Shown here: one piece after another, positions 2,777 through 15,848 of the stretch
Numbering within the stretch: the first letter of the stretch is position 1
Layout: each line of letters begins with the position of its first letter
DNA from: a virus
Direction: 5' to 3' (one strand)
IMG/VR virus record: IMGVR_UViG_3300009104_000129
Span: 1 to 22,438 of that record
DNA length: 22,438 nt
Notes under the pieces: generated by a model
Databases searched by the model: none
Told to the model about the DNA's origin: nothing
The model's input: the letters and a program-made list of their open reading frames with translations, nothing else
Position numbers and translations under genes: made by a program

Positions 2777-3763
2777 TTATGCCAATGCGTTCACTACACC
2801 TTGTTTGAAAGGATTCCTGCAAACAAGAACCATGTAACAAACAACAGTGAATGCAATTTCATCTTTTCCTGATGCATCTTTTGCCTCTACCTTGAAAGCA
2901 CCCTCAATGAGTTTACCCTCTGCAGTGTATGACTTCTGCGGTAGATAGTACAGTGCAAAATCGGAATTGTTTACAAAATCCATTCTTGCATTGTTGTACT
3001 TCGGGATGGCAATCACAGGGATGCCCCTGTAATCAAGAGCCATGAACCGAGCATCACCCTTTGCAGTCGGAACTGGACTGTATCTGCTATTCGCAGTTAA
3101 TAGTCCCTCATAGGCAGAATACTGCTTTTGAGATGTCCAGATTTGATTGGGTGGGGACAGTCTTGAATCAATCAAGTTGTCCCAGACATCATCCATCATT
3201 GCCAATGTCAGAGCACTGGACCCACCTGCTTTCACATAGGATGCAAACCATGACTGTGCAGTCTGGTCCACACCTGCAAGAGATGTGTTTGTGTTTCCAA
3301 CAATGTCACTGACACCATCAAAGGATGAGGTGCTTGTTGCTCCCTCTCCCATCATGTCCAGTGTGATGGCATGTTTTAGATCATCAACAGATAGCAATAA
3401 TTCATCTGCCAATAGGTCTGTGAGTGCGTTGTATCCACCTGCCAAGGCTTTGGCTTGGACCATACCATCAACAGATACAGTTGTACCATATCTCTTGTAG
3501 TCCCATTCTACTGTTTGCCTACCTTGTGCCTGTCCAACAGGGATCGCAGAACCTTCAGAAAAGGCTCCTGCATAGTCAGCCTCATTTGAGGTGACTGTGA
3601 CTGCTTGACCAGACTTGTGCATGGGGATTTGAATTCTCGCTTTTCCTGCGGACAGACCGACCTGTCCCATAAACCCTGCAGTGTTTGCAAAGGCTTTCTG
3701 GAATTCTGGAAAAGCAACTGTGTTCAGAATGTTCTGAACTTGAGTTGAGGCTACATTTGCCAT
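2777..3763 (-). CDS. Major capsid protein (HK97-fold)
   Basis: A 328-residue protein starting MANVASTQVQNILNTVAF, with AAGGAG 7 bases before the ATG. Length, place directly after the scaffold-like gene, and content fit an HK97-fold major capsid protein: an Ala/Gly-rich N-terminal region with RIQIPMHKSGQAVTVTSN, a helix region (LTDLLADELLLSVDDLKHAI), a central DxWDxLIDSRL segment, and a C-terminal strand region ending RNPFKQGVVNALA. No separate protease gene is seen nearby. The gene contains about a dozen CpG dinucleotides, many more than neighbouring genes, which may reflect selection for high expression. Confidence 0.85.
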   Translation of the reverse strand: MANVASTQVQNILNTVAFPEFQKAFANTAGFMGQVGLSAGKARIQIPMHKSGQAVTVTSNEADYAGAFSEGSAIPVGQAQGRQTVEWDYKRYGTTVSVDGMVQAKALAGGYNALTDLLADELLLSVDDLKHAITLDMMGEGATSTSSFDGVSDIVGNTNTSLAGVDQTAQSWFASYVKAGGSSALTLAMMDDVWDNLIDSRLSPPNQIWTSQKQYSAYEGLLTANSRYSPVPTAKGDARFMALDYRGIPVIAIPKYNNARMDFVNNSDFALYYLPQKSYTAEGKLIEGAFKVEAKDASGKDEIAFTVVCYMVLVCRNPFKQGVVNALA

Positions 3764-3820: not shown

Positions 3821-4453
3821 TTACAAGGCTTTCTGTAGTTCTTGTGAAACAAACTTTGAGACTTGTTCTCTGTCACTCAAGTCATCTGGCACACCACCAT
3901 TGGGTTCAACCTTTGGAGTGCCTTTGCCAAATGTAGGTGAGGATGGAGGTGAACCAGTGGAATCAAACAATCCGAGTTTCTCAACTTTTCCAAGTGATTC
4001 ACTCATGTTTCCAATACCATCTGGGTCAAGACCTGTCAGATCAATTTTCCCATCTTCATTCTGACTGACATCCAAGAAAGACTTTGCTTTGTCCCAGTTG
4101 GTGTGTGTGGCATACTTGTCCAGTTTCTTTTGGAGGTTGGTCCGAGCACTTTCAGTCCATTTCTGTTCTTTTTCCTTGAGTGTCTGAATCTCTGCTTTGA
4201 GTGCAGAATCATCAAGAGAATTGACTTGGTTTGTGAGAGAATCTACCTGTGCCTTGAGTTCTCTGTTGTCCTTGGCAAGAGATTCATTGTTGATCCTCTT
4301 GTCCTTGTTCTCTGATCCAAATACTTGGACCTTTGCAACCATGTCATCAAACAAACCGCCCATTTTCTGAAGGGCAACCTTGACCTCACTGGAGTCCATT
4401 TCAGTTCCTTTTGAACTGACCTCATTGAGGATTTCATGAAACGATTCAGCCAT
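3821..4453 (-). CDS. Scaffold-like capsid assembly protein
   Basis: A 210-residue acidic, highly helical protein starting MAESFHEILNEVSSKG, with AAAGGAG before the ATG. Residues about 45-115 form a coiled coil (DKRINNESLAKDNRELKAQV, LKAEIQTLKEKEQKWTES). A Pro/Gly-rich linker follows at about 165-190 (STGSPPSSPTFGKGTPK), then a short C-terminal helix (DREQVSKFVSQELQKAL). Such a helix and linker layout, immediately upstream of the capsid gene in transcription order, is the usual signature of a phage scaffolding protein, where the C-terminal helix binds capsid subunits. No protease motif is visible. Confidence 0.75.
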   Translation of the reverse strand: MAESFHEILNEVSSKGTEMDSSEVKVALQKMGGLFDDMVAKVQVFGSENKDKRINNESLAKDNRELKAQVDSLTNQVNSLDDSALKAEIQTLKEKEQKWTESARTNLQKKLDKYATHTNWDKAKSFLDVSQNEDGKIDLTGLDPDGIGNMSESLGKVEKLGLFDSTGSPPSSPTFGKGTPKVEPNGGVPDDLSDREQVSKFVSQELQKAL

Positions 4454-4523: not shown

Positions 4524-4787
4524 TTAATCTGGGACAATTAATACATCTGATGCCCTGATTCTGCTCCCAGAATAATGGGTTGCAAGTCTTTTCATGAACT
4601 TCAATCCATCGTATGGGTAGAGGTACTTCCCCCTGATCCCTACCTTTGTAAATATGCCCCTGTCTTTGAGTTCTTTTGCCAGATATCTGTCACCATCAAA
4701 CCTGCATGTTTTGCCCACAAGTTTCACTGTCAGGATCACATGCTGTGTGGCATCATCTCTGGTCTCATATACTTCAACAATTTTCAT
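4524..4787 (-). CDS. Small phage protein, unknown function
   Basis: An 87-residue protein starting MKIVEVYETRDDATQHVILT. The ATG follows the stop codon of 4788-6800 with no gap, and GGGAG lies inside the end of that gene. It has an alpha/beta pattern with a basic middle (RGIFTKVGIRGKYLYPYDG) and no recognised motif. It lies between the large head protein and the scaffold gene, so an assembly or virion role is plausible but not shown. Confidence 0.65.
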   Translation of the reverse strand: MKIVEVYETRDDATQHVILTVKLVGKTCRFDGDRYLAKELKDRGIFTKVGIRGKYLYPYDGLKFMKRLATHYSGSRIRASDVLIVPD

Positions 4788-6800
4788 TTACTCACTCCCT
4801 TTCCTATATTTCCCTTTTGCAAAATTATGATATTTATCAGACTCAAATCCTTTTGCATAGAAAGAATCAAGATGGACCCCTGTGTCAAGCACTCTGTCAA
4901 GCCTTGTGAAAAACACATCAATTGCAATGTCACTCATCCCTGATTCCTGTTTCATTCTGGTCCTGATGAATTGTTCATTTTGTTTCATGGTTTTCAATTT
5001 GCCCATCCAGTAGTCTGATACTCTTTTTCCTGAATAGGATGTGAGTGGTGTGCCATTTGATGGTGAGCCATGACCTGTGGGGAGAGTCAAACCATTATCA
5101 ATCAATGCAATCCTGACTTCCCATTCCTCCTCTGTGATTGTTTTCTGTGCAGGTGCATTTTTCATCTTTGTATTCAGTTTCCTGATTTCTCTCTTGCTCT
5201 TGGCAACATCTGCCTTTGCACTTTTAACATCTTCAGTCCTTTGAAACACATTCCTTGTCTGGCTCTGGATTCTCATTGTCACATTTCTTAATTCATCACT
5301 GTATGTCTGTGCTCTTTTTGACCATTTGAACCACTCATCTGTGTTGTCCTGTTCTGCAAACTTGTTGGCTTTATCTTCTGCATCTTTTATTTTCTTTTTC
5401 CATAGTGTCTGACCCTTTTTCATATCCTTGAGATGGTCTTTGCCTTGGACCAGTCTTTTTTCCATTATCTCAAGATGTTGCTCATTGTCTTTCAGTGCCT
5501 CTTTCTCTTTGTCTGTGTCTTTCCTGATCTGCACCCTTGGATCAATCTTTTTCTTGACCTGTTTCTTGACAGGTTTTGCCATCCAGTTTCCACCATGCCT
5601 GTCTGTGTTCTGCCCTATTGAGTCAATCAGATACCACCCCTCTGCATGTCTTGGTTTAATCAACTTCCTCCAGTTTTTGATTCCCCTATCACTCAAATAA
5701 TATTGCATATCACTGGATGACATATATCCATCTTTCCATCTCTGGAATGATCCAATCTTTCCTTTGTGCTTTCTCATCACTGTTGTTGGAACCAGACCAA
5801 GACCCATTTCCTCATCCAAGATTGAAAATGCCACCTCTCTCTTGTACTGATTGCCAATCTTGATCCCATCCCTCAACTGGTTGCCCACACTGTATGACTT
5901 TTTTGCTTTAGGCATCCCATACTCTGCCTCATGGCTTTTGAATACACCTTTGACACCATTCTCAAGGATCACACTCTCATTCACACCACCTGCTTTGATG
6001 TCACTCTCTTTCTTGACCTTTGATTTCTCCATTGAGGTCCTATCCTTGGCATGTGCTTTCCCAATCTTGCTCTTTCTTCTTGCTTTTGGACCCTCTGTGA
6101 GTGGTTTCTCCAGTGCAGTCTGGTGTGCCTCCATCTCTGCTTTAAAGTTTCTCTGTGCCACTGCAATCACTCTGTCATTCACATCCTGATATGATGTAGT
6201 CCTTGGGGCAACCTTTGCCTGTTGGTGGACCACATTTTGCATCCTGATGTCCCTCACTCCAAGGATTTCCTCTGCCTGTGTTCCTGCCCCTCTACCTCTG
6301 AACACTGCATTTGATAATGATGACACCTTTTGTCCTCTTTTGACTGGTCTCAACATGCACTTGCATCCTATGTTGCATTCTGTATCTCCCCACCTTGGCA
6401 GTCCCCTGCCCAAATCAAGCCACCCTTGTTTGGTCCTTGGTGGCATCTTTCCGAATCTCAAACAGTCCACACACCCTGATGCCTTTGGGTCCCTCACCCA
6501 GAGATATAGTTGCCCCCTCTCTGCTTTGAGGTCCTCAACAGGTTTGGCAACCATCCTCTGCTCCTGATCTGCAATCATCCTGTGGATTTTCCTTTTGATC
6601 CCAACAAAGTTGCCTGTGTAGTTTTGTGATGAGTATTGCTTTGCATCTGCAACCAGACCTCTCCTCACCTGTGCAGGACTCTCACCATTCAGGACCCTCC
6701 GTTTGAAGTCAGTCTCTGCCTGTGCCAAGATAGCATCAATCTCACCATCCAATTCAAGGGCAGTCAGGTCCACCAGATATTTTGTCCTCCTGTTATTCAT
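4788..6800 (-). CDS. Head morphogenesis protein with PI3/4-kinase-like domain
   Basis: A 670-residue protein, long for its family. Residues 1-155 resemble the Mu gpF/SPP1 gp7 minor head group: helices, then a Cys cluster C110, C113, C142, C146, C148 around GWLDLGRGLPRWGDTECNIG, a likely metal site. Residues about 275-590 look like an atypical (PI3/4K or HipA-like) kinase: VKGVFK with candidate ATP lysine K288, a Glu-bearing helix near E322, catalytic loop QNTDRHGGNW at 397-406, and metal-binding IDNGL at 567-571. Between the last two lies a charged coiled coil, residues about 410-555. ATGA overlap with 6797-7297 and position after the portal support a virion protein injected or packaged with the head. 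Kinase activity is inferred from motifs, not shown. Confidence 0.8.
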   Translation of the reverse strand: MNNRRTKYLVDLTALELDGEIDAILAQAETDFKRRVLNGESPAQVRRGLVADAKQYSSQNYTGNFVGIKRKIHRMIADQEQRMVAKPVEDLKAERGQLYLWVRDPKASGCVDCLRFGKMPPRTKQGWLDLGRGLPRWGDTECNIGCKCMLRPVKRGQKVSSLSNAVFRGRGAGTQAEEILGVRDIRMQNVVHQQAKVAPRTTSYQDVNDRVIAVAQRNFKAEMEAHQTALEKPLTEGPKARRKSKIGKAHAKDRTSMEKSKVKKESDIKAGGVNESVILENGVKGVFKSHEAEYGMPKAKKSYSVGNQLRDGIKIGNQYKREVAFSILDEEMGLGLVPTTVMRKHKGKIGSFQRWKDGYMSSSDMQYYLSDRGIKNWRKLIKPRHAEGWYLIDSIGQNTDRHGGNWMAKPVKKQVKKKIDPRVQIRKDTDKEKEALKDNEQHLEIMEKRLVQGKDHLKDMKKGQTLWKKKIKDAEDKANKFAEQDNTDEWFKWSKRAQTYSDELRNVTMRIQSQTRNVFQRTEDVKSAKADVAKSKREIRKLNTKMKNAPAQKTITEEEWEVRIALIDNGLTLPTGHGSPSNGTPLTSYSGKRVSDYWMGKLKTMKQNEQFIRTRMKQESGMSDIAIDVFFTRLDRVLDTGVHLDSFYAKGFESDKYHNFAKGKYRKGSE

Positions 6801-7297: not shown

Positions 7298-7542
7298 GAC
7301 TGACCCAGTTTTATTCCACCCTTGACAATCCTCTCTGCATGTTTCCTGATTTCAACTCTCATTTGTTGAGTCAGTTCTGCCTTTTCTTCTTTGGTTGTTG
7401 CCTTGATGATCTTGGGTGTGTGCTTGGCAATGATCCTGTTCATCCTCTCCTGTAGTTTGACAGTGAGAATCTGTTCTTTGTCTATCAGTTCACCAAGTTC
7501 ATCCCTCAAGTCTGATGCAACATAGACCTCCCTGATTGCCAT
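7285..7542 (-). CDS. Small helical basic protein, unknown function
   Basis: An 85-residue protein starting MAIREVYVASDLRDELGEL. It is almost entirely helical and rich in Lys, Glu and Arg (KATTKEEKAELTQQMRVEI). Its ATG shares one base with the portal stop (TGATG), so it is probably translated by coupling to the portal gene. No motif is recognised. The whole reading frame lies inside the CpG-free stretch 6702-8075. Confidence 0.65.
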   Translation of the reverse strand: MAIREVYVASDLRDELGELIDKEQILTVKLQERMNRIIAKHTPKIIKATTKEEKAELTQQMRVEIRKHAERIVKGGIKLGQSWLK

Positions 7543-9017
7543 CAGTTTTCAACCATTGCCCCATTGCTCCCCAGTGGGACAGGTGGTGCTTTTTGCTGTG
7601 GTGGTGATGCTATGCCAAACAACTCCTCAAACTCTTGGATGTTGTCCTTGATGTGTTGCTGTGCCTCATCTCTGCTCATTTCTGGGTTCTTTTTCTGGAC
7701 CCAGTCCACTGCACTGATCACTCCATCCTCCATCTGCAACTTTGCCAGTTCATAGTCTGCCTTTTCATCACTGATGATCTTTGGTTGTTGGTAGTCCACA
7801 ATCAGGCTGTCCATCACATTGGGATTGATCTGGTTGAATGGTCTGTGATAGTTGTTGCATTGAATCAATGTCTCAATGAGTCTCTGATCATTCTTTGTGA
7901 CTTTCATGATGTCTGATGCCCATTGTCTCAACAGTGGCTCATTCTTGATCCTCAATGCAATCCCTGACAGGTCCTGTTTGAGTTGTGTCTTGAGCACTGA
8001 TTCCACACTGTAGGTGGCACTCACCATGTCAACAAGTTGGTCCACATACTTCAACACATCCTCTGTGTATAGGTCCGCAGAAAGAATCTGTGTGGGTGCA
8101 CCTCCCTCTCCTGTGAATGCATTGGCACTGAATATGGGATTTCTCAATCCAGTCTTGATCTTGCCCTTGATGTCCTTGGTCCCAGTTGGTTCAAATCCCA
8201 TGATCAACAATCTGATTGCCTCTCTGATGGTGTCATCCTGCAGGACTGTGAGCAACAGGTTGATGGACCTGATCAGTTCAATCAGTGAGTCCATGCCATT
8301 GCCCCAAAAGGAATCCTGTCTCCTGTACCTCATTGTGACCCATGGAAAGTATTCACCAACAAACATGTCAGATGCCTCCTCACCAAATGAGAACTTTTCT
8401 CCAAGGATGTCCCTGCTCACTGGATCATATACTGGTGCATCTGCCATGAAGTAATGCAGACCCCTGATCCTGTCCCAGACTATATACATCTGTTTGTTAT
8501 CATCTGTTATGTATGGATATGCCACAATCATTGGATCATAAAAATGCTCTGGCAGTTCATAGACCAGTGCTGTCCCTGCATTGTACTGCTCAACCACAAG
8601 CCTGTCTATGTCCTCAACCCATTTGCAGTGGACCATGATGGTGTTGTGCATCTTCATCTTGATCATGTTGTCTGCCATCAGATGCTTGATATCCACCTCA
8701 TCAAACAGAGCCTCAAGCCTATCTTGGTCTTGACCCTCATTCTCAAACTTGATGATGGGTGGTGTGTTATATACAGAGCAAATCTTGTCCATGAATGATG
8801 GGATGAAATAGTCAAGTGTGATCAGTTTCATATCATCCAAGTCCTTTGCATCAGAGTAATATTTCCCAAGGTCCTCTTTTAGTTTTGCCTGTATGTGGAC
8901 AGAGTCCTGCTCCAGAAAGAAATCTCTTATTGATGCCCTCTTTTGTAGGTCAGCAAGTTGGTTCTTTTCTATTAGTGAATAATTAACAGCATGAACTGAA
9001 TCAAGTGATGACTGCAT
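7542..9017 (-). CDS. Portal protein
   Basis: A 491-residue protein starting MQSSLDSVHAVNYSLIEK, with AGGAGG 7 bases before the ATG. Portal proteins form the dodecameric DNA channel at the capsid vertex and bind the terminase and the connector. Length, place directly after the large terminase, and content fit: an N-terminal helical region, a wing region with many Asp/Tyr strands (LVYELPEHFYDPMIVAYPYI), a stem-type helical part (MDSLIELIRSINLLLTVLQD), a clip region, and a long C-terminal helix region rich in Gln and Glu (DEAQQHIKDNIQEFEELFG). The pattern is closest to the SPP1 gp6-type portal group as I read it; the subfamily is less sure than the function. Confidence 0.85.
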   Translation of the reverse strand: MQSSLDSVHAVNYSLIEKNQLADLQKRASIRDFFLEQDSVHIQAKLKEDLGKYYSDAKDLDDMKLITLDYFIPSFMDKICSVYNTPPIIKFENEGQDQDRLEALFDEVDIKHLMADNMIKMKMHNTIMVHCKWVEDIDRLVVEQYNAGTALVYELPEHFYDPMIVAYPYITDDNKQMYIVWDRIRGLHYFMADAPVYDPVSRDILGEKFSFGEEASDMFVGEYFPWVTMRYRRQDSFWGNGMDSLIELIRSINLLLTVLQDDTIREAIRLLIMGFEPTGTKDIKGKIKTGLRNPIFSANAFTGEGGAPTQILSADLYTEDVLKYVDQLVDMVSATYSVESVLKTQLKQDLSGIALRIKNEPLLRQWASDIMKVTKNDQRLIETLIQCNNYHRPFNQINPNVMDSLIVDYQQPKIISDEKADYELAKLQMEDGVISAVDWVQKKNPEMSRDEAQQHIKDNIQEFEELFGIASPPQQKAPPVPLGSNGAMVEN

Positions 9018-9020
9018 ATT

Positions 9021-10256
9021 TTATCCTCCTATCATTTGGTGGTTTCTTTGTGTTGTGTAAAATTTATCTGCAAATAGAATCCATGTGATATAATCAAATG
9101 CATCACTGGCATGGGTCCTCATTGGGTCCACCTTGCTCTTGGCTCCTTTGCCATCTGTCTCATTGGACTGTAAATCAGAAATCAAATATTGTGCCTTGTC
9201 TGTGATTGAAATTCTCTTATGTTGAATAAGGGAACAAATGACATTGACCCTGTTGTTGATGTTGGGGTTTTTCCTTGGGACCTTGAGAATGACATGCCAG
9301 TTGTGATTGACCAACTCATCCCTGATTAGGACATAGTCTGATGTGAAATCCCTGTGAGTCTCATATTTTGATGATGCATCTCCTGTCACATAGATCATCT
9401 TTTCTTTCACATGTGCATACTTCTTACAGAACTCTCTGATCAGGTGCTGTGTCTTGGCATTGTATTTCATGACCATCTCATCAATGACAATTATGTGCCC
9501 ATCCACCTCTTGGCAAACCAACCAGATCATTGGACTCTTGTTGAAATCACATGTCAGCCACAGTGGTGATCTCTCATCCCTTGTGATTGAACTTCTCACA
9601 ACTTGAACTGGATCAAAATTGTAGTATAGTGTGCCCTCATAGGTTTCAAAGGTTGCCTCAAACTCCTGCCTGAATGTTCTCTCATCCATCTCTTTCTCTG
9701 CCAGTGCAATCTCTTCTGGGTCCACACAGCCACCATCCTTTGTCTTGTACTCATACACCGCCCAGTCAGGATCATCCATTGCTCTCAAAAATAGGGAATG
9801 GAAATGGTTGTAGCCAGAGGGTGTCCCAGTGAACAGTGCCCTGCCTTTGGTATTTGATAGCATGGGCAGGATCACCATCTGCCAGACCTCTGGTTTCATG
9901 TAGGCATACTCATCCAGAACAACTTTTGTCAAGCCAACACCCCTCAATAGATTGGCTCTATCTGCCCCAACAATCCTGATCTCATTGTTGTTTGGCAGGA
10001 TGGCTTTCAGTTCTGTTTCATTGAATTGGCATTTGGTATCAGACAACATCTGCTTGAGTACATTCCAAGCAATTAGTTTGCCTTGCCTATAGGTGGGAGC
10101 AACAAAGAAACGGATGTCATTTGCTGTGAATTTATCTGACAGCAACCATGTCAAAGACAAGTAAGTTTTCCCCCATCTTCTCCCTGCCACTAAAATGACA
10201 AACCTGTGGGGGTCATGGAGTATGTTTACTCTATTATCATCAACTTTAATTTGCAT
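9021..10256 (-). CDS. terL: Terminase large subunit
   Basis: A 411-residue packaging motor, starting MQIKVDDNRVNILHD at the ATG at 10256; an in-frame TTG lies just before it. It drives ATP-powered DNA translocation into proheads and cuts concatemers. Walker A is GRRWGKT at 25-31, Walker B KVVLDE at 111-116 with catalytic E116, and the coupling motif is LFTGTPSG at 141-148. The RNase-H-like nuclease domain shows D237 in TCDFN, D293 in TGDAS, and D385/D388 in ASDAFD. The start overlaps the small terminase gene by 11 bases. All key residues are present, so it should be active. It comes just before the portal gene in transcription order. Confidence 0.95.
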   Translation of the reverse strand: MQIKVDDNRVNILHDPHRFVILVAGRRWGKTYLSLTWLLSDKFTANDIRFFVAPTYRQGKLIAWNVLKQMLSDTKCQFNETELKAILPNNNEIRIVGADRANLLRGVGLTKVVLDEYAYMKPEVWQMVILPMLSNTKGRALFTGTPSGYNHFHSLFLRAMDDPDWAVYEYKTKDGGCVDPEEIALAEKEMDERTFRQEFEATFETYEGTLYYNFDPVQVVRSSITRDERSPLWLTCDFNKSPMIWLVCQEVDGHIIVIDEMVMKYNAKTQHLIREFCKKYAHVKEKMIYVTGDASSKYETHRDFTSDYVLIRDELVNHNWHVILKVPRKNPNINNRVNVICSLIQHKRISITDKAQYLISDLQSNETDGKGAKSKVDPMRTHASDAFDYITWILFADKFYTTQRNHQMIGG

Positions 10257-10608
10257 CAAGCATGGACTTCACTCTTATCAGTTCAATTGGCTTGACCTGC
10301 TCCTGCTTGGGTTGTCCATTGTCAGATTGTCCAAGATGTTGCTTTCCCCACCATATTGACATGACAGGGACCTCATGTGCCATCCTGAACTGTGCTCTCC
10401 TCACTGAATGCTGTCCACCCAGACTGCCTTTTTTATATAGGCTGTCAAAAGTCTCCTCTCTTTCCGCTTTGCATCTTCTCTGTAAGGTGCGTACAGAAAC
10501 AGCCAGAACTTTTGCTATTTCCTCTTGGGTGCACTGGATTTCACAAAGGCTGTCAAAGACTCCCCAATCTATTTCGATTTTAGGTCTGCCAGTTCTGACT
10601 TTTGTCAT
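10246..10608 (-). CDS. terS: Terminase small subunit
   Basis: A 120-residue protein starting MTKVRTGRPKIEIDWGVFDS, with GGGAG 7 bases before the ATG. Residues 26-46 form a helix-turn-helix (TQEEIAKVLAVSVRTLQRRC) used by small terminases to bind the packaging site. The RAQFRMAHEVPVMSIWWGKQ segment is typical of the phage small terminase group in which a Trp/Gly/Lys-rich motif follows the oligomerisation region. The overlap with terL is standard. The packaging (pac or cos) site would be expected in or near this gene, but I cannot locate it by sequence. Confidence 0.85.
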   Translation of the reverse strand: MTKVRTGRPKIEIDWGVFDSLCEIQCTQEEIAKVLAVSVRTLQRRCKAEREETFDSLYKKGSLGGQHSVRRAQFRMAHEVPVMSIWWGKQHLGQSDNGQPKQEQVKPIELIRVKSMLDAN

Positions 10609-12970: not shown

Positions 12971-13537
12971 TTATGTGACCACAGAAAATGATGGCTCTTG
13001 TGACTCAACCTCAACACCATCAGGGATGTCACCTGTTTCCTTGATGTATTTTTTCATCTCTGCCTTGTTGATCATCTCCTTGATGCGGAGCATTGAGTCA
13101 AAATCACTTGAACCAGATTTGATCCAAGCCAAAACCTTTTCCTCATCTACAACTTGCACCTTGTCCTGTCTGGCTCTCATTTTCAGATCACCATTGGGCA
13201 GTGATATTGTTTTTTGATCTTGACCCATCATGAACAGGTGCAGTCTTTCAGAAAGAAAATCAATTGTTTTTTCTCTCTTGTTGCTTTCCCTGTCAATGTA
13301 TGCCTGTGCACTTTCAATCTGGTCTTGCCCAACTGCTTTGACCTTTTCTATTTCATTTCTCAACTTTGAAATAACATAGAGGTATTTATTTGCAGTGGTC
13401 TGACCCTCCACCACTTCATCAGTGGTGATTGGATCATCCAGATTCATTTCCCCAAGGACATCATACAAATATGAATCCTCTGGGTCTCTTGGTCCCATGT
13501 CTTTCAGTTCATGGTCCAGTTCTGCCATTTTACTCAT
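12971..13537 (-). CDS. Gam/Gp157-like host nuclease inhibitor or DNA-end protein
   Basis: A 188-residue protein from the ATG at 13537 (MSKMAELDHELKDMG), chosen for AAAAGGAGAC 5 bases upstream; the frame is open back to 13657 without a better site. Residues about 49-105 form a coiled coil (KLRNEIEKVKAVGQDQIESA). Then comes the family-type turn ISLPNGDLKMRARQDKVQVV, a helix DEEKVLAWIK, and a C-terminal IPDGVEVESQEPSFSV. This layout is that of Mu Gam and siphovirus Gp157-like proteins, which bind DNA ends and block RecBCD-type nucleases. It lies in the same cluster as the Rad52-type annealing protein. The role is inferred from family likeness. Confidence 0.65.
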   Translation of the reverse strand: MSKMAELDHELKDMGPRDPEDSYLYDVLGEMNLDDPITTDEVVEGQTTANKYLYVISKLRNEIEKVKAVGQDQIESAQAYIDRESNKREKTIDFLSERLHLFMMGQDQKTISLPNGDLKMRARQDKVQVVDEEKVLAWIKSGSSDFDSMLRIKEMINKAEMKKYIKETGDIPDGVEVESQEPSFSVVT

Positions 13538-13631
13538 TACAGTCTCCTTTTGGTTTGCAGGGGAGTCATTGACCTCCTGATTCTCATCTGGAGTGGCATC
13601 CATCCCATCAATGCCCTCCCCTGCCATTTTA

Positions 13632-13961
13632 TTAATCAAGGAACAACTTGAGATCATAGATGTCCTTTTTGACCTGTTCAGCCTTTTGATGCCTCTTGTC
13701 CCATAGTTTGCCCCTCAAATGAGGTTTCAACTCTTGGAGTTTTCTTCTGCATCTTCTGACAGATCCATCATCAGGTAGGTTGCCCTCTGCCATCTCATGC
13801 AGGAACTTTTTGACACCACTCATCTCCTCACCTGTCAGTTTATTCTGCAAGGTGTTTGATACTCTCAACCAATAAACATTGGCAAGGAGTTTCTGGTCAT
13901 TGTCCCTCAAATGCTCATTGTCAGTGAGCAATTGTTCTACCTGTTTTTTATAGCCTTTCAT
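13632..13961 (-). CDS. Conserved-looking phage protein, unknown function
   Basis: A 109-residue, highly helical and basic protein starting MKGYKKQVEQLLTDNEHLRD. The central part (DQKLLANVYWLRVSN, then FLHEMAEGNLPDDGSVRRCR and LRGKLWDKRHQKAEQV) is a pattern I associate with small hypothetical proteins in phage recombination/replication clusters, where an SIRRCRRKLQE-type helix follows a short loop. The ATG overlaps the stop of the Rad52-like gene by 4 bases (ATGA), so it is probably translationally coupled. A DNA-binding or partner role for the annealing protein is possible but unproven. Confidence 0.65.
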   Translation of the reverse strand: MKGYKKQVEQLLTDNEHLRDNDQKLLANVYWLRVSNTLQNKLTGEEMSGVKKFLHEMAEGNLPDDGSVRRCRRKLQELKPHLRGKLWDKRHQKAEQVKKDIYDLKLFLD

Positions 13962-14800
13962 GACTGGATGATTAGCATTGCCATGGTTTCAGTGGCATCC
14001 TGATCCATATCACCTGCAGGTTGTACCCACTGATTGGCTGTGATCCTTGTGATGATTTCCTTTGATGCCATCAACTGTCTTTCAGCATTCTTTGGATATT
14101 TCTCCACATCCATCTTTGTGAGAATCCACATCAACAGGTTTGGCTCAATGTCTTTCCATGCCTTGTCCCTGTTTTCATCTGTGAATCCAATTGGCTGTCT
14201 CCTGCCATTCAGTTTCCAATCCTGATAGTCACCATTGTCTCCATTGGGTGGTGCTCCATTCTGCTCATCTTTCTCATCTTCATCAAATGGTATCTCACGA
14301 TAGTCACCAGTCTCCATCTCTTTCCTCACTGCCTTTTGCTTTGTCTTGCGGTCCTGTGTAGGGGACCAGTCAAAAGGTGCTTTCCAGTTGCCATCTGATC
14401 TCTGCTCACAGTCCACAAAGTGGATGTCCAGATCATATAGGTCTGCACAAATGCCAAAGGCAAAACATGCCCTCTTGAATGCATCTGATACCTCACCCTT
14501 TTCCTTTTCAAACTCTGATGGGACACCACAGTCCTGCTTGGTCACTTTCGTGCCATCAGGTGATGTGATTGTGAGTGAACAAAAAAGAACTCCTTTTGAG
14601 TCCCTTGTGTACACACACTCCCACCCAAAGATGCCCAGTGCCTCATCAAGAATTCTCCTGACCAGTCTGGCATCCGTGTATGCAACCATAGTGGCTTTAC
14701 CAGTGTTCCTGTTGATGCTCTGGCACTTCCACTTGATTTCATCAATTGGGGTTGGTTGTTGCAGGATGGCTTGAATGTCATCCCATTTATTTGGTTTCAT
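13958..14800 (-). CDS. Rad52/Sak-type single-strand annealing protein
   Basis: A 280-residue recombinase from the ATG at 14800, which follows AAAAGGAGACAACA. Residues about 20-125 are the Rad52-type annealing domain: EIKWKCQSINRNTGKATMVA, YTDARLVRRILDEALGIFGW, a strand pair VLFCSLTITSPDG, and the diagnostic helix GEVSDAFKRACFAFGI. Such proteins form rings that anneal complementary single strands during phage recombination and replication. After about residue 140 the sequence is acidic and disordered (IPFDEDEKDEQNGAPPNGD), then a C-terminal helical region (EKYPKNAERQLMASKEIIT) that may bind a host partner such as SSB. It is preceded by its own promoter and starts the block 14800-12971. Confidence 0.8.
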   Translation of the reverse strand: MKPNKWDDIQAILQQPTPIDEIKWKCQSINRNTGKATMVAYTDARLVRRILDEALGIFGWECVYTRDSKGVLFCSLTITSPDGTKVTKQDCGVPSEFEKEKGEVSDAFKRACFAFGICADLYDLDIHFVDCEQRSDGNWKAPFDWSPTQDRKTKQKAVRKEMETGDYREIPFDEDEKDEQNGAPPNGDNGDYQDWKLNGRRQPIGFTDENRDKAWKDIEPNLLMWILTKMDVEKYPKNAERQLMASKEIITRITANQWVQPAGDMDQDATETMAMLIIQS

Positions 14801-14851
14801 TGTTGTCTCCTTTTGCTCTTTGTTCAAATGCCCAAAAATAGGCACTTTGAT

Positions 14852-14880
14852 ATGATATAACTTACAAAGATTTAAAACAA
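14852..14880 (-). promoter_or_regulatory. Candidate promoter for the Rad52-like gene cluster
   Basis: On the minus strand TTGTTT (14880-14875) is followed after 17 bases by TATCAT (14857-14852), a 5/6 match to the -10 consensus. It lies between the terminator at 14882-14908 and the start at 14800. The -10 box sits inside a copy of the TATATCATA motif (14851-14859) found three more times around 19220-19362, so the same regulator may act at both places. Confidence 0.5.
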
Positions 14881-14881
14881 T

Positions 14882-14908
14882 AAAAAAGGGGCAGAAAAAA
14901 TCTGCCCC
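14882..14908 (-). terminator. Intrinsic terminator after the Toprim gene
   Basis: GGGGCAGA (14888-14895) and TCTGCCCC (14901-14908) form a perfect 8-bp stem with a 5-base loop. On the minus strand six T residues follow. It ends the transcript that includes 14937-15848 and separates it from the promoter at 14852-14880. The stem is the same as that of the terminator at 18173-18199. Confidence 0.85.
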
Positions 14909-14936
14909 TCTTGTTTGGGTGGTGTGCTGTCAGGGA

Positions 14937-15848
14937 TTATTCTCCCATGTCCTCCAGATAGTCAAGGACCATGCTGTAATTTTCAGCAATCCTTGTGAGG
15001 TTTGCTTTGTCCTCTTTTTCAATTGCCACCTGTTGATCATACAGGTCCACATCAATCCAATCTTTGATGTGATTCTCAACTGTGTCAGACAACACCTGTG
15101 GCTCAATAGCATCAATCTCCCATGAGTCTGTGCCATACTCATTGATGTATTCTTGTGCCCTTGAGTCTGTGACCTTGGCAAAGTTGGGTGGTGGTTTGAG
15201 AACTTCAATCTGGTTCATGGTCAAAGCAATGTGCTTGACTTTCAGATCATAGCCATTCTGCTTGGCATTGAATTCACCAACCCTGTCATCCACATCCCTG
15301 ATCATATCCAGTCCTGATGGGTCATGGTCCCCCATGTACAGGATGACATTGTTGTCATGTCTCTGGAATCTCTGATGTGCATCTCTCATGGCTGTGCAGG
15401 ATGAATATCCCCTGTTGACCATAAGCCTGACATGATACTTGCTTGTGACCCTGCCCACAATTGCTGACAGTGCCTCTTTCTCAAGCCAGACCTCAACATT
15501 CCAGTCCTGCCCTTTCTGCCTGTCCACCCTGTAGGTCCTTGCAGTGTCCTCAAGTGCATCCTCAACATCAATGGACCAATAAGGCAACCTCGGTCTCCGT
15601 AGTCTGTCCTCGATTGAGTCCCAGTCTATGAGTCCACCCATCCTGCCTTTGGTGCAAAGGTTGATCACCTTTTTATACTCTGACATGTTGTTTGGGATGA
15701 TGTCCCTTGCAACCATCTGGTAATACAACTGCCTCAAGGTCAGCCTCAATCCTTGGTTCCTGTAGTCATCAAGAATGTTGTTGATGATGTCCAGTTTGCC
15801 AAGGTTCATTTTGCTGATCCCTGCATTGGCTCTGAATGATTCTTTCAT
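14937..15848 (-). CDS. Toprim protein with Spo11/TopoVIA-like tyrosine motif
   Basis: A 303-residue protein starting MKESFRANAGISKMNLGKL, with AAAGGAGACTGAC before the ATG. Residues 35-80 look like the winged-helix region of Topo VI A/Spo11: LRLTLRQLYYQMVARDI has the R-x-L/I-YY pattern that carries the catalytic tyrosine (Y42/Y43), then SEYKKVINLCTKGRMGGLID. Residues 115-230 are a Toprim fold: VWLEKEAL with E123, then LYMGDHDPSGLDM with D174 and D176 for metal. Together they resemble the single-chain 'Mini-A' Topo VI A homologues found in mobile elements. No B subunit is seen here. DNA cleavage or topoisomerase-like activity is inferred. Its ATG shares one base with the HAD gene stop. Confidence 0.75.
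   Translation of the reverse strand: MKESFRANAGISKMNLGKLDIINNILDDYRNQGLRLTLRQLYYQMVARDIIPNNMSEYKKVINLCTKGRMGGLIDWDSIEDRLRRPRLPYWSIDVEDALEDTARTYRVDRQKGQDWNVEVWLEKEALSAIVGRVTSKYHVRLMVNRGYSSCTAMRDAHQRFQRHDNNVILYMGDHDPSGLDMIRDVDDRVGEFNAKQNGYDLKVKHIALTMNQIEVLKPPPNFAKVTDSRAQEYINEYGTDSWEIDAIEPQVLSDTVENHIKDWIDVDLYDQQVAIEKEDKANLTRIAENYSMVLDYLEDMGE

What the first reader, a model, noticed from the sequence alone, without database searches (positions are those of the whole stretch)
4788..6800. Head protein carrying a PI3/4- or HipA-like kinase domain
The Mu gpF/SPP1 gp7-like Cys-rich head region (C110, C113, C142, C146, C148) is joined to a domain with candidate ATP Lys K288, catalytic loop NTDRHGGNW and metal motif IDNGL. 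A virion protein of this family can be injected, so a phage may deliver a kinase with its DNA. ADP-ribosyltransferase fusions of this head family are known; a kinase fusion is, to my knowledge, much less described.
Basis: partly seen in the sequence, partly recalled or inferred. Interest (0 to 1): 0.75.

Follow-up and report, generated by a model that had tools for sequence, protein, structure and literature searches.

The report
Phage head protein with fused kinase
An uncultivated bacterial virus carries, at the head-protein position of its structural genes, one long protein that ends in an apparently intact kinase resembling the human lipid kinase PI4K type II, with an exchangeable coiled-coil arm beside the active site, so the virus may inject a phosphorylating enzyme together with its DNA.

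Summary
In detail: window 4788-6800 (minus strand) is one 670-aa ORF with every named residue present. The kinase reading is confirmed and sharpened. Residues 264-412 plus 553-645 form a complete kinase core, best matched by PI4K type II in sequence (single-sequence phmmer 3e-5; profile of diverse phage relatives 1.7e-13) and in predicted fold (pLDDT 90; all 12 PDB hits at E<=0.001 are PI4KII). HipA is much further away.

The Mu-F identity of residues 1-200 is plausible but not significant by sequence. It rests on the Cys motif, the gene slot, and the sister kinase L010, which has a significant Phage_Mu_F domain.

(1) Related kinases are fused to Phage_Mu_F, minor-capsid-2, portal, zeta-toxin or 2H proteins in other viral contigs. 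(2) A 140-aa coiled-coil hairpin between catalytic loop and metal motif is exchanged as a cassette: 17% identity where flanks are 70-74%, and about 100% DNA identity between two relatives whose flanks are about 65%. The gene is the least conserved of its head cluster.

Best explanation: a virion-packaged kinase effector. Activity, injection and substrate are inferred, not shown. Verdict: new variant of the known MuF-effector kind.

The parts
4788..6800 (-). 670-aa ORF: MuF-like N-terminus, linker, PI4KII-like kinase with coiled-coil insert
   Evidence: conserved at 58-65% identity in IMG/VR contigs L001, L002, L003/L005
6201..6800 (-). MuF-like head region, residues 1-200
   Evidence: 69-87% identical among relatives; no significant Pfam/NCBIfam/PDB match; hhalign to 12 MuF domains not significant, 11 of 200 shuffles as good
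6333..6515 (-). Cys cluster C110-x2-C113 ... C142-x3-C146-x-C148-x3-P152, residues 96-156, resembling the MuF motif W..D..C..C...G...CRC...P
   Evidence: invariant in all relatives; motif resemblance by eye and by the weak hhalign path
6012..6200 (-). linker, residues 201-263, Lys-rich
   Evidence: variable
5565..6011 (-). kinase core part 1, residues 264-412: N-lobe, alphaC, alphaE, catalytic loop
   Evidence: AlphaFold2 pLDDT about 90; Foldseek PI4KII E=2.4e-7; profile of relatives to PI4KII 1.7e-13
5937..5939 (-). K288, candidate ATP-binding Lys (NGVKGVFK)
   Evidence: at least 90% conserved over 17 phage kinases; the family's VFK lysine aligns with PI4KII-alpha VFKPK
5835..5837 (-). E322, candidate alphaC Glu (YKREVA)
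   Evidence: invariant in 24 kinases
5583..5609 (-). catalytic loop NTDRHGGNW, residues 398-406 (D400, N405)
   Evidence: D400, R401, H402, N405 invariant in 24 kinases; aligns with PI4KII NTDRGNDNW
5145..5564 (-). insert, residues 413-552: antiparallel coiled-coil hairpin (helices 421-483 and 487-548) extending the beta-hairpin between catalytic loop and metal motif
   Evidence: pLDDT about 90 or more in both models; absent from the other 20 kinases aligned; mosaic inheritance
4866..5144 (-). kinase core part 2, residues 553-645: metal motif and C-terminal helices
5088..5102 (-). metal motif IDNGL, residues 567-571 (D568)
   Evidence: D568 invariant in 24 kinases; aligns with PI4KII IDNGLAFP
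9021..10259 (-). terminase large subunit (start of head cluster)
   Evidence: phrog_2 6e-29, PF03237 2.6e-7
7542..9017 (-). probable portal protein (by position only)
   Evidence: no family match; position as in Vibrio phage 1.157.O and Pelagibacter phage HTVC111P
6797..7297 (-). 166-aa upstream gene, overlapping start
   Evidence: syntenic in L001 and L008; no family match
4524..4787 (-). 87-aa downstream gene, start abuts the kinase stop
   Evidence: syntenic, 60-80% identical in relatives; function unknown
3821..4453 (-). coiled-coil protein, probable scaffold
   Evidence: coiled-coil matches only; position between MuF slot and major capsid gene
2777..3763 (-). major capsid protein
   Evidence: PF17236 4e-7, phrog_9953 6e-19

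Best explanation
The gene encodes a virion-associated effector of the MuF type. The N-terminal Cys-rich region anchors the protein in the head at the portal, and the C-terminal part is a catalytically complete PI4K type II/FAM20-like kinase that is packaged with and ejected with the DNA and phosphorylates a host molecule, most likely a protein, early in infection. A long coiled-coil hairpin, inserted between catalytic loop and metal motif and exchanged between related phages as a cassette, probably sets which target (or which virion/host partner) the kinase docks on. Shown here: ORF, kinase homology and predicted fold, conserved catalytic residues, gene slot, mosaic arm, relatively fast divergence, recurrent fusion of the same kinase family to head and portal proteins. 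Inferred: MuF identity of this particular N-terminus, activity, packaging, injection, target, role of the arm.
For: Kinase: phmmer 3e-5, profiles 4e-8 and 1.7e-13 to PI4KII, then FAM20B 2.6e-7, FAM20C 3.4e-7, CtkA 0.003; predicted fold pLDDT 89.8 with the 12 PDB hits at E<=0.001 all PI4KII; catalytic residues invariant in 24 kinases; NCBIfam SCO1664 family 2.7e-5, far below its cut-off. Head protein: cluster TerL-portal?-85aa-166aa-ORF-87aa-coil-MCP, same slot as 'head morphogenesis' in Vibrio phage 1.157.O; sister kinase L010 has significant Phage_Mu_F (1.2e-15; sister support 88/90). Delivery theme: the same kinase family is joined to Phage_Mu_F (L010, L022, L028), Phage_min_cap2 (L021), portal (L015, L042, L049), portal plus Mu_F (L060), zeta toxin (L017), 2H/HAD (L020); on the tree the head, portal and other labels need at least 7 changes. 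Effector-like evolution: 65% and 59% identity where TerL, portal?, coil and MCP keep 81-95%; insert swapped. dN is below dS over the kinase parts.
Against: No enzymatic, proteomic or ejection data. PF00454 is below its cut-off for the window protein itself (14.2 against 27.1 bits), although most relatives pass it. Mu_F identity of residues 1-200 fails every sequence test. The window is a 22-kb record of unknown completeness, so host and lifestyle are unknown. No integrase was found in the 37-kb relative, whereas MuF toxins were reported as restricted to temperate phages (PMC5576092). A fast-evolving gene could also reflect relaxed constraint.
Confidence: 0.55

Rival explanations
1. The kinase acts inside the producing cell or capsid on phage proteins (portal, scaffold, capsid, packaged proteins) to time assembly or packaging, and is not a delivered effector.
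For: Gene sits between portal? and scaffold/capsid genes; fused to a structural-type region. FAM20-type relatives phosphorylate secreted structural proteins (own knowledge).
Against: Presumed partner proteins are 81-95% conserved while the kinase gene diverges to 59-65% overall and the arm to 17%; the kinase family also occurs beside zeta toxin and 2H domains in polyvalent-type proteins.
Confidence: 0.2
2. A phage lipid kinase: the domain phosphorylates phosphatidylinositol or another host membrane lipid after injection, as its closest solved relatives do.
For: PI4KII is the closest solved relative in sequence and fold.
Against: The palmitoylation Cys motif known from PI4KII (own knowledge) is absent between K288 and E322 (no Cys in that stretch); FAM20 and CtkA, also matched, phosphorylate sugars or proteins; most bacteria lack phosphatidylinositol (own knowledge); host unknown.
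Confidence: 0.1
3. The kinase fold is kept as a structural or binding module (pseudo-enzyme); the coiled-coil arm is the working part, for example as a plug, spacer or binding element.
For: The arm is large, confidently predicted and exchanged as a unit.
Against: The catalytic residues are invariant or nearly so across 24 distant relatives, and dN is below dS over the kinase parts.
Confidence: 0.1
4. MuF polymorphic toxin with a dedicated immunity gene: a kinase toxin used by lysogens against competitors, the 87-aa downstream gene being the immunity protein.
For: MuF toxins exist (PMC5576092); a small gene abuts the kinase stop.
Against: The 87-aa protein tracks the conserved cluster rather than the arm type: 80% identical to L001, which has a different arm, and 60% to L008, which has the same arm type; no integrase in the 37-kb relative.
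Confidence: 0.05

Closest known systems
Phosphatidylinositol 4-kinase type II alpha/beta (PDB 4hnd, 4pla, 4wtv)
   Same: Best sequence and fold match; colinear GSFQ, NTDR..NW and IDNGL motifs, ATP Lys in VFK
   Different: 13-14% identity over the structural alignment; no Cys in the stretch between ATP Lys and alphaC Glu; coiled-coil hairpin instead of the short segment between catalytic loop and metal motif; phage head context
FAM20 kinases and bacterial CtkA/HipA
   Same: Related fold and catalytic-loop region
   Different: Weaker matches than PI4KII; no head fusion
MuF effector fusions (ART, RelA/SpoT, nucleases, 2H, Nudix, zeta-toxin kinase)
   Same: Architecture: head domain followed by enzymatic C-terminus (PMC5512222, PMC5576092, PMC9503650)
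   Different: Enzyme class is PI4KII-like; the swappable arm within the enzyme is not described in the passages read
Polyvalent-protein kinase (Pfam Kinase-PolyVal; Iyer 2017)
   Same: Kinase in an injected-type phage protein
   Different: Described as lacking the C-lobe and having an insert between catalytic His and Asp; the window protein does not match that Pfam model and retains C-terminal helices
NCBIfam SCO1664 family (TIGR03843)
   Same: Weak similarity over the alphaC to pre-catalytic-loop region (2.7e-5)
   Different: Far below that family's cut-off (23.6 against 172.4 bits)
Myxococcus phage Mx1 'kinase' WNM70334.1
   Same: PF00454-type kinase in an isolated phage, next to a Nudix protein, found with relative L017
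   Different: Not matched by the window protein itself in the isolate collection

Membership tests
PI3/PI4-kinase superfamily, type II-like | PI3/4K kinase fold | tested here: met
   Foldseek: the 12 PDB hits at E<=0.001 are all PI4KII, model pLDDT 89.8
PI3/PI4-kinase superfamily, type II-like | ATP Lys, alphaC Glu, catalytic Asp and Asn, metal Asp | tested here: met
   K288, E322, D400, N405, D568 conserved
PI3/PI4-kinase superfamily, type II-like | Pfam PF00454 above curated cut-off | tested here: not met
   14.2 bits against 27.1 for the window protein; relatives L012, L014-L017, L020-L022, L028 pass
Phosphatidylinositol 4-kinase type II (the enzyme) | palmitoylated CCPCC motif between ATP Lys and alphaC | tested here: not met
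   no Cys between K288 and E322
Phosphatidylinositol 4-kinase type II (the enzyme) | phosphorylates phosphatidylinositol | not testable with these tools
   no assay
Phage_Mu_F / SPP1 gp7 minor head protein | PF04233 or TIGR01641 match | tested here: not met
   no match at the thresholds used, E up to 5-10; relatives L010, L028, L060 match
Phage_Mu_F / SPP1 gp7 minor head protein | profile-profile similarity to MuF domains | tested here: inconclusive
   score 18.0, colinear over 120 columns, 11 of 200 column shuffles as good
Phage_Mu_F / SPP1 gp7 minor head protein | Cys motif and gene slot between portal and scaffold/capsid genes | tested here: met
   motif judged by eye, portal assigned by position
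Phage_Mu_F / SPP1 gp7 minor head protein | present in the virion and ejected with DNA | not testable with these tools
   no virion available
HipA | HipA_C / HipA_2 family match | tested here: not met
   no match for the window protein; Foldseek 0.05
Kinase-PolyVal | Pfam model match, C-lobe lost | tested here: not met
   no match among Pfam-A at E<=5; C-terminal helices predicted
MuF polymorphic toxin | adjacent immunity gene | tested here: inconclusive
   87-aa gene abuts, but does not track the arm type

The most novel reading that the evidence does not exclude
A virion-delivered kinase with exchangeable targeting: the catalytic core is kept while a coiled-coil arm placed between catalytic loop and metal motif is swapped between phages by recombination, retargeting the injected kinase much as tail fibres are swapped to retarget adsorption.
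Probability: 0.3. Interest if true: 0.82.

Novelty: new variant of a known kind. Interest (0 to 1): 0.6.

Why it matters
If right, phages inject not only ADP-ribosyltransferases and nucleases but also PI4KII/FAM20-like kinases, so host phosphorylation at the moment of entry becomes a testable layer of phage take-over. It gives a candidate function to phage proteins matched only by phrog_3162 ('unknown function'), and the two natural arm types offer a built-in experiment on kinase targeting.

Tried and rejected
Full-length AlphaFold2 on five close sequences gave pLDDT 50 and no usable MuF or kinase-core model; only the coiled-coil insert was confident. hhalign of the N-terminus to 12 MuF domains and hmmsearch with a MuF profile were not significant. 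BLASTP of the N-terminus to the L010 MuF domain found nothing; to the Vibrio 1.157.O MuF protein a weak colinear match, E=0.019 for a single comparison. tblastn against 50,697 isolate phage records: no match with the window protein, L028 or L022 kinases; L017 finds Myxococcus phage Mx1. Two further scans for N-terminal relatives without the kinase returned only the same contigs. BFVD fold search had no hit at E<=0.001; its first-ranked hit was a Nudix-domain phage protein (0.0012), and an ADP-ribosyltransferase of Mycobacterium phage Onyinye stood at 0.007, noted but not followed. Considered an assembly artefact and rejected: the same architecture occurs in several IMG/VR contigs. Considered HipA and Kinase-PolyVal membership and rejected.

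Full report
What was checked. Window 4788-6800 (-) holds a 670-aa ORF in a 22,438-base virus record. Its start overlaps the stop of the preceding gene and its stop abuts the next start.

Kinase identity. The single protein finds PI4K type II-beta in the PDB at E=3.3e-5, with colinear matches over the catalytic loop and the metal motif. A profile of the window family finds it at 4e-8. A profile of 11 distant phage relatives that excludes the window family gives PI4KII-alpha 1.7e-13, then FAM20B, FAM20C, CtkA and PI4KIII-alpha. An AlphaFold2 model of residues 264-670 on 24 sequences has mean pLDDT 89.8 and pTM 0.72. All 12 PDB hits at E<=0.001 are PI4KII; CtkA follows at 0.006 and HipA at 0.05. 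TM-scores against PI4KII are moderate (0.32-0.49), as expected with a 140-residue insert, so the assignment is fold and motif level, not close kinship. K288 is at least 90% conserved; E322, D400, R401, H402, N405 and D568 are invariant in 24 kinases. The active site is therefore predicted to be complete.

The insert. Residues 413-552 form a helical hairpin (421-483, 487-548) that extends the beta-hairpin between catalytic loop and metal motif. The other 20 kinases aligned have only a short loop there. Identity between window and L001 is 74% and 70% in the two kinase halves but 17% in the insert; between window and L003 it is 55%, 49% and 54%; between L001 and L002 it is 64%, 65% and 78%, with dS 0.18 in the insert against 0.94-0.99 in the flanks. 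In sliding windows the L001-L002 insert reaches 99-100% DNA identity over window residues 434-491 while the adjoining kinase windows are about 55-75%. The insert is thus exchanged as a cassette, in at least two types.

Head-protein identity. No profile recognises residues 1-200, and profile-profile comparison with 12 MuF domains is not significant. In favour stand the Cys pattern, the order TerL - probable portal - 85 aa - 166 aa - ORF - 87 aa - coil - MCP, the same slot being 'head morphogenesis' in Vibrio phage 1.157.O, and the sister kinase L010, whose N-terminus is a significant Phage_Mu_F domain (1.2e-15; 88/90 support). I give MuF identity about 0.8, and it remains inferred.

Spread of the kinase. 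Viral-contig scans with kinase profiles returned related domains in roughly twenty further distinct proteins. Fusion partners with Pfam or PHROG support: Phage_Mu_F in L010, L022 and L028 (L022 below the Pfam cut-off), Phage_min_cap2 in L021, portal in L015, L042 and L049 (Pfam portal matches below cut-off in L015 and L042; PHROG portal 1.6e-24 in L015), portal plus Mu_F in L060, zeta toxin in L017, 2H in L020 and L042. A tree needs at least seven label changes for head, portal and other, though many deep forks are weak and only five of 21 inner branches are strongly supported. Most of these relatives pass the PF00454 cut-off. In isolates I found one related protein, a 'kinase' of Myxococcus phage Mx1.

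Evolution. In a cluster where the other genes compared keep 80-95% (window-L001) or 60-91% (window-L008) identity, the kinase gene is the least conserved, at 65% and 59%. Within it the MuF-like part is most conserved and, against L001, the insert least. The 87-aa downstream protein is next lowest. dN is below dS over the kinase parts, so they look to be under purifying selection, although dS is near saturation in several comparisons.

Mechanism. The best-supported account is a head-packaged kinase effector. That MuF proteins can carry injected enzymes is taken from the literature (PMC5512222, PMC5576092, PMC9503650). Activity, injection and target are not shown here. Against: no biochemical data, PF00454 below cut-off for this protein, and no integrase in the 37-kb relative although MuF toxins were reported as restricted to temperate phages.

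Novelty. MuF fusions with enzymes, including a zeta-toxin kinase, are known. A PI4KII-like kinase in this position was not found in the papers searched; the search covers open-licence papers only and supplements were not read. I rate it a new variant of a known kind, with the swappable arm as the part most likely to surprise a specialist.

Noticed in passing
L042:1802-6844: Portal protein that appears to be interrupted by an intein (Hint domain match, below cut-off) and carries 2H and PI4KII-like kinase domains at its C-terminus.
   Followed up: no
L010:5898-6917: Phage integrase (PF00589 1.7e-27 at G004:19814-20398) immediately upstream of the MuF-kinase gene in the closest outgroup.
   Followed up: no
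L064:5672-6559 and L065:5916-7364: Kinase relatives in bacterial MAG contigs (Gemmatimonadetes, Planctomycetota) whose proteins begin with what looks by eye like a signal peptide, possibly secreted kinases of the same superfamily.
   Followed up: no
L090:348-4787: Myxococcus phage Mx1 has a 4.4-kb gene annotated NUDIX hydrolase beside its kinase gene; BFVD's first-ranked fold hit to the window kinase is also a Nudix-domain phage protein.
   Followed up: no
window 12971-15848: Replication/recombination block: Mu Gam-like protein, Erf-like annealing protein, a 303-aa topoisomerase-family protein (phrog_6247, 1.2e-85).
   Followed up: partly
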